The notes under the pieces: generated by a model
Databases searched by the model: none
The model's input: the letters and a program-made list of their open reading frames with translations, nothing else
What the model was told of the DNA's origin: nothing
Translations under genes and position numbers: made by a program
Shown here: positions 46,953 to 55,575 of the stretch, in pieces
Position numbering within the stretch: position 1 is the first letter of the stretch
Layout: every line of letters starts with the position of its first letter
Origin: Mariniphaga anaerophila
Lineage (GTDB): Bacteria; Bacteroidota; Bacteroidia; Bacteroidales; Prolixibacteraceae
Length of the DNA stretch: 64,000 nt
Assembly (NCBI RefSeq): GCF_900129025.1
Contig: NZ_FQUM01000011.1
Location: forward strand, 1-64,000
Direction of reading: 5' to 3'

Positions 46953-47090
46953 ATTCAGTTTAAATAAAACTAAAAAGTAGAGGACTTTTTCCACTTAAAT
47001 ATGCTCTTTCTTAACCATTCGATTCAAATATTGTTCGCGTTTAGTCAAAAAATTCAATATTATTTTTATCTAAACTGATTCCAAATAAGT

Positions 47091-47120
47091 TTTGTTTTTT
47101 GAAAAAACGCTTTATATTTG
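47091..47120 (+). promoter_or_regulatory. Strong promoter of the methionine operon leader
   Basis: TTTG at 47091-47094, an 18-base spacer, and TATATTTG at 47113-47120 match both Bacteroidota promoter elements. The predicted start is near 47126, about 18 bases before the leader ORF. Just upstream, two overlapping inverted repeats (AATATTG/CAATATT and GTTTAG/CTAAAC, 47027-47075) could be an operator. Confidence 0.75.
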
Positions 47121-47143
47121 TCGCAAACAAAATCGGTAAATAA

Positions 47144-47242
47144 ATGAATTCATTGATTCAACATACTTCACAAAATGTTCCGGGAAACCTTTCCGGAAAA
47201 CGTGGATTCATGTTACCGTCATTTTTCATGTTTATGCGCTAG
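47144..47242 (+). CDS. Met-rich leader peptide upstream of the methionine operon
   Basis: This 32-codon ORF begins 24 bases after the -7 element and ends 91 bases before the aspartokinase-like gene. Its last twelve residues read GFMLPSFFMFMR, so three internal Met codons (23, 29 and 31) fall within the final ten codons, which is far above background. The position, size and amino-acid bias are those of attenuator leader peptides such as those of amino acid operons, where ribosomes slow on the codon of the scarce end product. The downstream genes make O-acetylhomoserine and homocysteine, the precursors of Met. Translation of the ORF is not proven. Confidence 0.6.
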   Translation: MNSLIQHTSQNVPGNLSGKRGFMLPSFFMFMR

Positions 47243-47276
47243 CCTTCTTTCGGTGGTTTTCCCATTGACTGGAGGC
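47180..47276 (+). promoter_or_regulatory. Competing RNA pairings in the methionine leader (attenuator-like)
   Basis: Three pairings can be drawn. A: 47180-47186 with 47190-47196 (CCGGGAA/TTTCCGG). B: 47195-47201 with 47256-47262 (GGAAAAC/GTTTTCC). C: 47242-47247 with 47271-47276 (GCCTTC/GGAGGC). B excludes A and is incompatible with C except as a pseudoknot. A ribosome held at Met31 (47234-47236) would cover the left arm of C. No clear T-run terminator follows, so control might act on translation or by a factor-dependent stop. Confidence 0.4.
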
Positions 47277-47333
47277 ATACAGATTTTAGCGATAACAAAT
47301 TCATAGTTTTTACATTTTTCTTTTTTATTTAAT

Positions 47334-48650
47334 ATGTCGGATAAAGTTATTCGATTGGGCGGCGGCCATGCAGGGTCTGTTGCATCAATTCAAAATTTAG
47401 TTTGGTATTCTGAAAAACAAAACGGCAAAAAATTCATCGTCGTTTCTGCGGTTCCTGAGATTTTATGTTTAGTGCAATCAGCAGTTTCGGAAGCTTTTAG
47501 TGCGGACGTAACAAAGGTTTATGACGAGCTGGCCGGAATATATCTGACGCTGACCGGGAATAATCCTTCTGAAGCTTATGGGGAGCTGGCCACGCAGTTG
47601 GCCGGAATACTTAAAGGAATAGGACTTATTGGTGATTATTCCGCTGCATTGAAGGATCAGGTTTTGAGCTTCAGCGAGAAGTTAACTGCAGAAATATTTC
47701 AGGTTCAGTTTGAGAAATGTGGTATAATTGCCAAAATTTTGCAGCCCGAACAATTGGGGCTGGAAGTTACTCCCGATTACGGAAATGCCACATTTGTTGC
47801 GGTGGGTAAATCGCTAAGTGATCTTGAACCCGGATTTTATCTGGTGCCCGGATCATTTGGAATCACTGCTGAAGGGAAAACAGCCCGCGCTGGAGAAACG
47901 GCTGCCGATTACACCGCTGCCTTTTTAACACGCGAATTCGGAATTGAGAAACTGGAACTTTGGGGACTCAATTTCGATTTTCATCGGGCAGATCCGGCAA
48001 TTGTTTCCGAACCTCCGCGTATTCAGCGGCTCACCTATTCGGAGGCCAGCGAACTGGCATATTTCGACCACTATTCGTTTCACCCGCGAACTGTGGAGCC
48101 GCTGGAAGCTGAACACATCCCAATTCATGTTGTTAATACCAGTTCGAAAGATGGCAGCGTAGATACCGTAATTAATACGGAAACTTATGTTGAACCGCAA
48201 ATTGTGAAAAGTGTGGCCTGTACCGATGATATTTCGTTGTTGCGGCTTAACGGACCCGGAGTGGGGCTGAAACCGGGAATTCTGGCAAAGGTGACTTCCC
48301 GGTTAAATAAAGAGGGAATTAACATAAAATCGGTGATTACTTCTCAGATTTCCATTAACCTGATTCTAGAACGGAAATCCGGTGCCAGGGCTTTGGAGTG
48401 TATTCGCCAATTGGGATTTTCGGCTGTGCAGGACATTACGGTTATCGACGATGTTTCGCTTGTGGCAGTTGTTGGGCACGGCATGCAACAAAGCTACGGA
48501 GTCTCGGCCAAAATTTTTGGTGCGGTTGCCCAGCATAAAATTAATGTAGTTTTAAGCGGCTCAGGTGCTTCCGATTTGGTGAGCTATCTGGTTGTAAAAT
48601 CTTCTGATAAAGAGAAAAGTGTACGCGAAATTTATAAAGCATTTTTTTAA
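47334..48650 (+). CDS. Aspartokinase-like protein with degenerate active site and ACT domains
   Basis: The product is 438 residues. The overall layout is that of monofunctional aspartate kinase: amino-acid-kinase domain to about 290, then two ACT domains (LNGPGVGLKPGILAKVTSRL at 305-324; VSLVAVVGHGMQ at 374-385). YSEASELAYFDHYSFHPRTV (235-254) keeps the family pattern. But the catalytic motifs are altered. The KFGGTSV phosphate-binding motif reads RLGGGHA (7-13). The TTLGRGGSD nucleotide motif reads TARAGETAAD (183-192). The WTDVDG motif reads WGLNFD (210-215). The usual SAMGG region reads VVSAVPEI. It may therefore be inactive and serve as a Met/Thr-sensing regulator. It is followed by metY after 18 bases. 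Confidence 0.8.
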   Translation: MSDKVIRLGGGHAGSVASIQNLVWYSEKQNGKKFIVVSAVPEILCLVQSAVSEAFSADVTKVYDELAGIYLTLTGNNPSEAYGELATQLAGILKGIGLIGDYSAALKDQVLSFSEKLTAEIFQVQFEKCGIIAKILQPEQLGLEVTPDYGNATFVAVGKSLSDLEPGFYLVPGSFGITAEGKTARAGETAADYTAAFLTREFGIEKLELWGLNFDFHRADPAIVSEPPRIQRLTYSEASELAYFDHYSFHPRTVEPLEAEHIPIHVVNTSSKDGSVDTVINTETYVEPQIVKSVACTDDISLLRLNGPGVGLKPGILAKVTSRLNKEGINIKSVITSQISINLILERKSGARALECIRQLGFSAVQDITVIDDVSLVAVVGHGMQQSYGVSAKIFGAVAQHKINVVLSGSGASDLVSYLVVKSSDKEKSVREIYKAFF

Positions 48651-48662
48651 CCCGAAAAATAG

Positions 48663-49973
<1,311 letters not shown>

Positions 49974-50055: not shown

Positions 50056-50973
50056 ATGCCAGTAAACGTTTCCGATAAATTGCCTGCTATTAAAATTCTT
50101 GAAGAGGAGAATATTTTTGTGATGGATGAGTCACGAGCAGAGCAGCAGGACATCAGGCCCCTAAGAATAATAATACTTAATTTGATGCCGCTGAAAGTGA
50201 CAACAGAAACCGATTTGTTACGATTGCTATCCAATTCGCCTCTACAAATTGAAATTGAATTCATGAAAATAAAGGGGCACAAATCGAAAAATACTTCGTC
50301 GGAGCACATGAAGCAGTTTTATAAGAATTTTGATGAACTGAACAGTAAAAAGTACGACGGGATGATTATTACCGGCGCACCTGTTGAATTGCTGCCGTTT
50401 GAGGAGGTTACTTACTGGAACGAAATAAAAGAGATACTGGACTGGGCGCAGCGTAACGTTTATTCTACAATGTTTATTTGCTGGGCCGCACAAGCCGGCC
50501 TTTATCATTACTACGGAATTCCGAAATACGAGCTTCCGCAAAAAATGTTTGGTGTATTTGAACATACGCATTCCAACTCCCATCTGCCTATTCTTCGCGG
50601 GTTCGACGACGTATTTTTTATGCCGCACTCCCGCCATACAGAAATCAGAACAGCAGATATTGAAAAGGTGGAAGGCCTTGAAATTATTGCGCAGTCTGAA
50701 GAAGCCGGTGTTGCCATGGTTAAAGCGAAAAACGGAAGACAGTTGTTTATCACCGGTCATTCTGAGTATTCCCGCAACACGCTTGATACCGAGTACAAAC
50801 GCGACGTTGCGAAAAAGTTGCCTATTCACATTCCGGTAAACTATTACCCGGGAGACGATCCTTCCAAAACTCCCTGTATGCGTTGGGGATCAACTGCAAA
50901 TCTGCTGTTCTCCAACTGGCTGAATTACTATGTTTATCAGGAAACGCCTTACAATCTTGAAGAAATTGGCTAA
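50056..50973 (+). CDS. metA: Homoserine O-acetyltransferase, MetA type
   Basis: The product is 305 residues. MetA-fold acyltransferase (class I glutamine amidotransferase-like) that activates homoserine for Met synthesis. Lys47 (PLKVTTETD), Cys142 in [11 protein letters not shown], and the His/Glu of HSEYSRNTL are all present. Residue 111 (TGAPVE) is Glu. In this family Gly at 111 goes with succinyl-CoA and Glu with acetyl-CoA, so the enzyme should make O-acetylhomoserine, the substrate of the adjacent MetY. Automated naming as a succinyltransferase would be misleading. Confidence 0.93.
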
Positions 50974-54439: not shown

Positions 54440-55120
54440 CTACGATTCCTTTTTAATGAAATTGTACACCAGGCCGGCAGCAATCGCTCCCAATACAGGA
54501 ATCAGGATGAATAGCCATAACTGTGACAACGCCCAGTCTCCTACAAACAAAGCCTGACTAATACTCCTGGCAGGATTTACGGAAGTGTTAGTTACCGGAA
54601 TACTGATTAGGTGGATTAGAGTTAATGCCAGTCCGATGGCAACTCCGGCGAACCCTTTTGGTGCGTTTTCGTCGGTTGCACCAAGAATAACAATCAGAAA
54701 CATGAAAGTCATTACAAATTCTGATACGATGGCTGCCAGCATACTGTACCCGCCGGGAGAGTGCTCGCCGTACCCGTTGGCGGCAAAGTTTCCTATTTCA
54801 TTGCCATTTCCGGTGGCAATAACGTACAATACTGCTGCCGCTGCAATTCCGCCCAAAATCTGGGAAATTACATAAGGAACTATGGTTTTTCCGCTTACTC
54901 TGCCGCCTGCCCATAGCCCGATGGTTACTGCAGGGTTTAAGTGCGCTCCCGAGATGTGTCCCAGGGAATAAACAATGGTCAGTACAGTCAGACCAAAGGC
55001 AAGTGCAACGCCAAGCAGTCCAATCCCGACATCGGGGAACCCGGCAGCCAAAACCGCACTGCCGCAACCTCCTAATACTAACCAAAATGTACCAATAAAT
55101 TCAGCTAAATTTTTCTTCAT
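54440..55120 (-). CDS. aqpZ: Aquaporin Z-type MIP channel
   Basis: The product is 226 residues with six membrane helices and both NPA half-helices ([14 protein letters not shown] and [13 protein letters not shown]). ar/R filter residues fit a water-selective aquaporin: Phe in the first half ([13 protein letters not shown]), His in LIHLIS, and Arg after the second NPA. It mediates rapid water flux under osmotic change. It has no partner in the same direction. Confidence 0.95.
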
Positions 55121-55575
55121 CTTTTTTACCAGTTAAATTCCTACTCGTAAGGCTTTTCGGATATGCCCCGTTTTTTTGAGTGGGTGCTGGACTCCACTTT
55201 TCTAATTAAAGTTAGGGAATAGCGTTATTTAAAACAAAATTATTTATGTAATGCTATAACTCAGCTTTTGTATTGTATGTTTCTGTACAACAGTTTGTTC
55301 TTGTGTTTTGGTGTTCTTGTGGTAAATGAGAAATATGCCCGCAATATACGAATTCACGAAGAATCAGTATGCTTTTTTGTTAAATAAAATGTTTTAAGAT
55401 GCGCATGCGTGAGGGTCAGCCCGCCGAGTATTTAGTGTTTTTTTGCTTACAGCATTTAGTGTGAGGATTTGCTGTTTGTTGTTTTTTTTGATTTGTAGAT
55501 GTGGATTAAGTGAGGAAATTGTTGAATAATTTGAGTCCTTAAATTAATCCGGACTTGAATAGTTGTTGATAAGTG
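55121..55575. other. Gene-free A+T-rich interval
   Basis: No gene, tRNA or clear hairpin was found. It presumably holds the aqpZ promoter at its left end and the 3' end of the small basic protein gene at its right end. Confidence 0.5.

What the first reader, a model, noticed from the sequence alone, without database searches (positions are those of the whole stretch)
47144..47276. Candidate methionine-sensing leader peptide
A promoter matching both consensus boxes drives a 32-codon ORF ending FFMFMR, with three Met codons in the last ten, followed by mutually exclusive RNA pairings and then a Met-biosynthesis operon. I found no SAM riboswitch motif in the interval. This looks like ribosome-mediated control by Met in Bacteroidota, where riboswitches are usually expected.
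Basis: partly seen in the sequence, partly recalled or inferred. Interest (0 to 1): 0.8.

Follow-up and report, generated by a model that had tools for sequence, protein, structure and literature searches.

The report
Methionine-sensing leader peptide in Bacteroidota
Upstream of a bacterium's methionine genes lies a tiny gene whose protein ends in alternating methionines right before a conserved RNA hairpin; the design is kept in many related species and in some follows a SAM riboswitch, which suggests that a stalled ribosome reports methionine shortage.

Summary
Upstream of orthologous aspartate kinases (AK) in one GTDB family, 90 of 91 regions examined carry a short ORF ending at a shared hairpin: 87 with a Met tail (typically MxM[R/Q]-TAG), 3 with Thr/Ile codons. 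The G of TAG opens hairpin P2 (GCCUUC…GAAGGC). Swap tests between genera support P1 and P2's inner stem. In four genomes where no such AK was found, the leader directly precedes metY-metA. In 13 genomes of other Bacteroidales families, and in genus g17 of this family, a SAM-I riboswitch lies upstream of the Met leader; no SAM-I was found in 4 genomes of the window's genus. There is no conserved terminator/antiterminator pair, so it is not a textbook attenuator. Most likely a ribosome short of Met-tRNA parks on the tail and keeps both helices open; what this gates (Rho termination favoured) is inferred. No expression data were available. My searches found no published Met leader peptide. New variant of a known kind.

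The parts
47091..47120 (+). Promoter-like boxes TTTG - 18 nt - TATATTTG
   Evidence: Sequence. A TTG-N17-23-TAnnTTTG match was found upstream of 87 of the 90 regions listed (none for L086, L088, L104); not a mapped start.
47134..47151 (+). 5' strand of helix P1 ('lock'): CGGUAA 47134-47139 and AUGAAUUC 47144-47151, covering the leader start codon
   Evidence: matched -10.5 vs swapped between genera -7.6 kcal/mol, 0 of 2000; present in the centroid of the window fold
47144..47242 (+). Leader ORF, 32 codons, stop TAG
   Evidence: synonymous share of single-base differences within genera 0.39 (last 9 codons) and 0.34 (rest) against 0.18 and 0.22 expected (the pairs are not independent)
47204..47218 (+). 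3' strand of P1: GGAUUCAU 47204-47211 and UUACCG 47213-47218
47228..47242 (+). Tail M-F-M-R-stop (Met codons 47228 and 47234; a third Met codon at 47210)
   Evidence: Position frequencies; invariant columns
47242..47276 (+). Hairpin P2: GCCUUC 47242-47247 with GGAGGC 47271-47276; inner stem 47250-47256 with 47262-47268
   Evidence: Fold -18.5 kcal/mol, 0 of 200 shuffles as good; inner stem matched -6.74 vs swapped -3.21, 0 of 2000; lower stem
47277..47333 (+). Spacer between P2 and the AK start; no terminator-like site
   Evidence: none for L002; C 0.105, G 0.070
47334..48650 (+). Aspartate kinase, first gene of the operon
48669..49973 (+). metY, O-acetylhomoserine sulfhydrylase
50056..50973 (+). 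metA, homoserine O-acetyltransferase

Best explanation
A ribosome-mediated leader that senses methionine through its Met codons controls the AK-metY-metA operon. Shown by comparison: a conserved short reading frame with a fixed Met tail, a hairpin P2 that begins with the G of the stop codon, a helix P1 between the leader's start region and the codons just before the tail, and linkage to methionine genes. Inferred: with enough Met-tRNA the ribosome finishes and leaves; P2 forms, P1 closes the leader start, and the leader RNA stays free of ribosomes (operon off). With Met-tRNA short, a ribosome halts on the last Met codons and by its footprint covers the 3' strand of P1 and the 5' arm of P2 (operon on). 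The output step is the least certain: I favour Rho-dependent termination in the untranslated leader, because no consistent U-tract follows P2 and I saw no structure over the AK start. Where SAM-I is present it probably adds a second input by closing the leader's start region at high SAM.
For: 90 of 91 regions; covariance model hits 110 of 140 family genomes at E <= 0.05, 108 at E <= 1e-7, and one place in the own genome; P1 and P2 swap tests; compensatory GUCUUC/GAAGAC in G102; leader before metY-metA without the AK in G083, G088, G090, G096; Thr/Ile codons in place of most Met codons in three g9 genomes that also carry SAM-I; Met-tail ORFs with unrelated hairpin stems in other families.
Against: No expression, start-mapping or ribosome data. 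The lower stem of P2 hardly varies, and slid controls reach a similar covariation score. P1 is not above its swaps in 4 of 15 genera: g8, g9, g13, g16. Five leaders have lost the stop at this place. 9 of 88 P2 hairpins are followed by 5 T in 8 nt, and 26 of 90 leaders hold some loose terminator-like site; the first one listed lies inside the ORF in 22 of the 26. C over G after P2 is modest (0.077, n=63, vs 0.011, sd 0.072, n=43) and only 0.035 in the window. Met shortage would also slow initiation, which complicates Met sensing by a leader.
Confidence: 0.75

Rival explanations
1. Nascent-peptide sensor: the peptide end MxMxM[R/Q] itself arrests the ribosome in response to Met or SAM, in the manner of TnaC (recalled).
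For: Alternating rather than consecutive Met; -1 is Arg or Gln in 83 of 91 rows; Cys at -14 in 46 of 88.
Against: Positions upstream of about -10 drift; the tail differs between families, and g9 uses Thr/Ile. The -1 codon is limited to a few related codons, CGC, CGA or CAA in 83 of 91 rows, which may be an RNA constraint.
Confidence: 0.14
2. The leader is a textbook transcription attenuator with terminator and antiterminator.
For: Geometry of regulatory codons followed by a hairpin; loose terminator-like sites in 26 of 90 leaders.
Against: No consistent U-tract after P2, none scored in the window, no conserved pair of mutually exclusive helices in the genus alignments (by eye).
Confidence: 0.07
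3. A structured RNA (new riboswitch or protein site) in which the reading frame is incidental.
For: P1 and P2 supported; near-invariant GCCUUC.
Against: Frame and synonymous bias; Met codons kept across families with different stems; no Rfam match at the leader.
Confidence: 0.04

Closest known systems
Amino-acid leader-peptide attenuators (trp, his, thr, leu; Rfam leader families listed in PMC3766115, passages read)
   Same: Short ORF rich in the codon of the pathway's end product, followed by RNA structure, before the biosynthetic operon.
   Different: Met, Bacteroidota, a single stop-adjacent hairpin without a consistent U-tract, plus a start-region helix; no antiterminator seen.
Cys leader peptides of mycobacterial cys operons (PMC1262725, passages read)
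   Same: Regulatory codons near the stop codon, no obvious terminator; the authors weakly suggest Rho. They report no conserved RNA element at methionine operons of Actinobacteria.
   Different: Those leaders lack conserved hairpins; here a hairpin begins in the stop codon.
Bacteroid-trp RNA, RF01692 (PMC2864571: only its table row seen; that it holds Trp codons is recalled)
   Same: Candidate cis-regulatory RNA in Bacteroidetes; leader-like control in this phylum is therefore not new as such.
   Different: No Rfam match at this leader; different amino acid.
Short leader ORFs in Bacteroides thetaiotaomicron 5' UTRs (PMC7366714, passages read)
   Same: Authors note sORFs reminiscent of leader peptides.
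   Different: Named example is a hypothetical gene, not methionine.
toiL uORF of E. coli (PMC12121999, abstract and outline) and B12 riboswitch plus uORF in M. tuberculosis (PMC11260477, abstract and outline)
   Same: Ribosome stalling in a uORF changes RNA structure with Rho termination downstream; a riboswitch that controls a translated leader.
   Different: Different signals and genes; no Met codons reported in what I saw.
SAM-I riboswitch, RF00162
   Same: Present before the same operon in relatives.
   Different: Not found in the window's genus; in tandem leaders it is followed by the Met ORF, whereas L209 has SAM-I, a strong terminator and no leader.

Membership tests
Classical leader-peptide transcription attenuator | Short ORF with regulatory codons for the pathway's product, conserved in relatives | tested here: met
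   87 of 91 regions have at least 2 Met among the last 6 residues
Classical leader-peptide transcription attenuator | Upstream of the cognate biosynthetic operon | tested here: met
   AK, metY and metA together in 14 of 17 contexts; metY-metA alone in 4 further genomes
Classical leader-peptide transcription attenuator | Intrinsic terminator and a mutually exclusive antiterminator | tested here: not met
   loose sites in 26 of 90, none in the window leader
Classical leader-peptide transcription attenuator | Expression rises when the amino acid is short, through stalling | not testable with these tools
   No expression data
SAM-I riboswitch (RF00162) | Match to the aptamer model | tested here: not met
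   No match in the window leader or own genome
Rho-dependent leader (tnaC or mycobacterial Cys type) | C-rich, G-poor loading region after the leader ORF | tested here: inconclusive
   Modest in the family, small in the window
Nascent-peptide arrest leader | Conserved residues beyond the regulatory codons | tested here: inconclusive
   Arg/Gln at -1 and Cys at -14 are frequent but not fixed

The most novel reading that the evidence does not exclude
The ancestral Bacteroidales form is a two-input switch in which a SAM-I riboswitch gates translation of a Met-codon leader, so that the operon is on only when SAM is low (leader starts) and Met-tRNA is low (ribosome parks). Lineages then dropped or swapped an input: the window's genus kept the Met leader with an RNA lock and no SAM-I; genus g9 kept SAM-I and recoded the leader to Thr/Ile.
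Probability: 0.4. Interest if true: 0.86.

Novelty: new variant of a known kind. Interest (0 to 1): 0.73.

Why it matters
Met is not among the amino acids with leader families listed in PMC3766115 (His, Trp, Thr, Leu; passages read), perhaps because Met also starts every protein (my reasoning). A conserved Met-codon leader would add a new specificity and a simpler architecture to ribosome-mediated control, in a phylum where leader peptides are barely documented: one 2010 paper (PMC2965389, passages) knew of none outside Proteobacteria and Actinobacteria apart from its own Firmicutes cases, while PMC7366714 and the Bacteroid-trp entry hint at some. The tandem with SAM-I and the codon swap to Thr/Ile are natural experiments on how riboswitches and ribosomes share or replace each other.

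Tried and rejected
Class-wide search with covariance model R1: 10 weak hits outside the own genome (E 0.001-0.01). 9 of 10 lie in stop-free frames of 246 codons or more; L108 does not, and shows no Met-tail ORF. Treated as chance. Only a sample was scored, with strict filters, so absence beyond the family is not shown.

Class-wide search with AK profile A2: besides the own genome only hits in open frames of 815-836 codons, taken as bifunctional kinases. Pattern TAGCCTTC-N8-38-GAAGGC in the own genome: 0, because the window has GGAGGC. Upstream of thrA in the own genome and two relatives: a hairpin with T-run after the preceding gene (looks like recA, unverified), no Met leader. Viral contigs: two remote AK relatives, not followed. 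The L203 stretch folded was badly cut; one search has the right one.

Rows dropped: L086 and L131 are one leader (G102); G134 (L104, L133, L256) has no leader. One search listed this AK type in 111 family genomes; I examined 91. Of the 20 left out, 18 have an R1 hit (G048, G056) do not. One search left out G102. Starts were set by hand for L076, L092, L094 and L098. Tandem leaders outside the family were found by reading short ORFs, partly with a filter of at least two Met codons, so that count is not blind; several have only M-x-M (L201, L203, L205, L242).

My earlier wording 'no terminator after SAM-I' was too strong: 7 of 16 tandem leaders hold one loose terminator-like site, 9 of 16 none.

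Full report
Observation. The window is contig C34 of a 5.05 Mb genome. Its best matches among named records by AK are Mariniphaga and Tangfeifania, so that GTDB family f1 is probably Prolixibacteraceae (inferred). Rfam has no match at the leader.

Conservation. One search listed this AK type in 111 of 140 family genomes. I examined 91 upstream regions: 90, and G101. 83 of 90 match a strict pattern. Reading the other 7 by eye shows the element in 6 and none in G134. With G101 that makes 90 of 91. 87 have at least two Met among the last six residues; the 3 that do not are genus g9, ending IRTNTSML, TRTNTSML and TRTSISML. Met is at -2 in 89 of 90 and at -4 in 86 of 90. The stop is TAG in 84 of 90, TGA in 1, and lost in 5: CAG in 3, CTG in 1, AAG in 1 (whose 91 rows count G102 twice). 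Model R1, built from 59 leaders, hits 110 of 140 family genomes at E <= 0.05, 108 of them at E <= 1e-7, and one place in the own genome.

Reading frame. Frame 0 is open by the way starts were chosen; over the same stretch the other frames are open in 1 and 18 of 86 leaders. Single-base differences within genera are synonymous in 0.39 (last nine codons) and 0.34 (rest), against 0.18 and 0.22 expected (pairs are not independent).

P2. The G of TAG opens GCCUUC/GAAGGC. In 59 rows all 354 cells pair, but 4 of 6 pairs never vary, one varies on one side in 5 rows and one on both sides in 2; slid controls reach a similar covariation score. The lower stem alone is therefore weak evidence. The inner stem is better: matched halves -6.74, swapped between genera -3.21 kcal/mol, 0 of 2000 draws (87 leaders, 15 genera). 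G102 has the compensated stem GUCUUC/GAAGAC. After P2, 9 of 88 hairpins have 5 T in the next 8 nt, the rest fewer.

P1. The leader's start region (22 nt before to 8 nt into the ORF) pairs with the stretch 42 to 16 nt before the stop. In the window: CGGUAA with UUACCG and AUGAAUUC with GGAUUCAU. Other genera use other sequences, for example AAGGCAUAAUAA with UUAUUAUGCCUU in g7. Matched -10.5, swapped -7.6 kcal/mol, 0 of 2000 with one leader per genus; shuffled segments -7.7. It exceeds both swaps in 11 of 15 genera and not in g8, g9, g13, g16. In g6 and g2 the best duplex is not always over the start codon.

Methionine linkage. AK, metY and metA stand together in 14 of 17 contexts. Exceptions: L131 (contig ends soon after the AK), L132 (whole contig, AK-metA), L133 (G134: AK with neither gene in about 5 kb downstream, and no leader). 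In G083, G088, G090 and G096, where one search found no such AK, the leader directly precedes metY-metA.

SAM-I. 0 of 4 genomes of genus g1 and 40 of 100 family genomes have a match. It lies just before this operon in g17 (G111-G114) and g9 (G074, G075, G077) by coordinates, confirmed in the sequences of L121, L118 and L136. Outside the family 21 genomes have this AK type: 20 of 393 order genomes, counting without the 5 of the family, and G769. SAM-I lies upstream in 16 of 21. Not found in G755, G760, G803, G622; G908 was not scanned. A Met-tail ORF follows in 13 of those 16 and occurs without SAM-I in G755. None seen in G549, G691, G694, G760, G803; G622 and G908 could not be read properly. 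The gap from the end of SAM-I to the leader AUG is 8-16 nt in 14 of 16 tandem leaders measured, 21 in L136 and 43 in L200. In L203 (GCUUCUUC/GAAGAAGC) and L242 (GCGC) the stems are unrelated to GCCUUC but again begin at the G of TAG. 7 of 16 tandem leaders have one loose terminator-like site, 9 none; L209, with SAM-I and no leader, has a strong one.

Mechanism. Shown: frame, Met tail, helices, linkage, tandem. Inferred: stalling, opening of P1 and P2 by the ribosome, SAM-I acting on leader translation, Rho as the output. The Thr/Ile tails of g9 favour codon sensing over a fixed arrest peptide, although they keep Met at -2. C over G after P2 is modest across the family and small in the window, so Rho is a guess.

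Literature. Full-text searches listed no methionine leader peptide; most subscription journals are not held. Passages read: PMC7366714, PMC12452182, PMC2965389, PMC3766115, PMC1262725, PMC8632094, PMC2864571. Abstract and outline: PMC11260477, PMC12121999. Everything else was seen as listings only.

Noticed in passing
window 47066-47089: Imperfect inverted repeat TTATCT-N11-AAATAA just upstream of the -33 box; a similar repeat (TTATCT...A[AG]ATAA) stands there in 25 of 88 family leaders (g1, g6, g12, g22 among those printed) and once without mismatch in the window. Possible operator of a second regulator.
   Followed up: partly
L118, L102, L136 (G074, G075, G077, genus g9): SAM-I followed by 15-codon leaders MITMTTITRTSISML, MITIYYITRTNTSML, MITNNNTIRTNTSML before AK-metY-metA: Thr/Ile codons instead of a Met tail.
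   Followed up: partly
L025, L064, L077, L046, L048: TAG replaced by CAG, CTG or AAG; the ORF then runs into the hairpin, but the G that opens P2 is kept.
   Followed up: no
L087-L100, L105 (genera g3, g10, g17): A second small hairpin of changing sequence (such as TGCTC/GAGCA, GTCT/AGAC, GGTCC/GGACC) about 10-15 nt after P2.
   Followed up: no
L204, L206, L237, L238, L246 (family f114): The tail runs on through a GCATGC-N3-GCATGC hairpin that itself holds Met codons.
   Followed up: no
window 55134-55202, minus strand: Rfam DUF805 RNA (RF03081, 76.5 bits) directly upstream of a gene at 54440-55120 that looks like an aquaporin (by eye).
   Followed up: no
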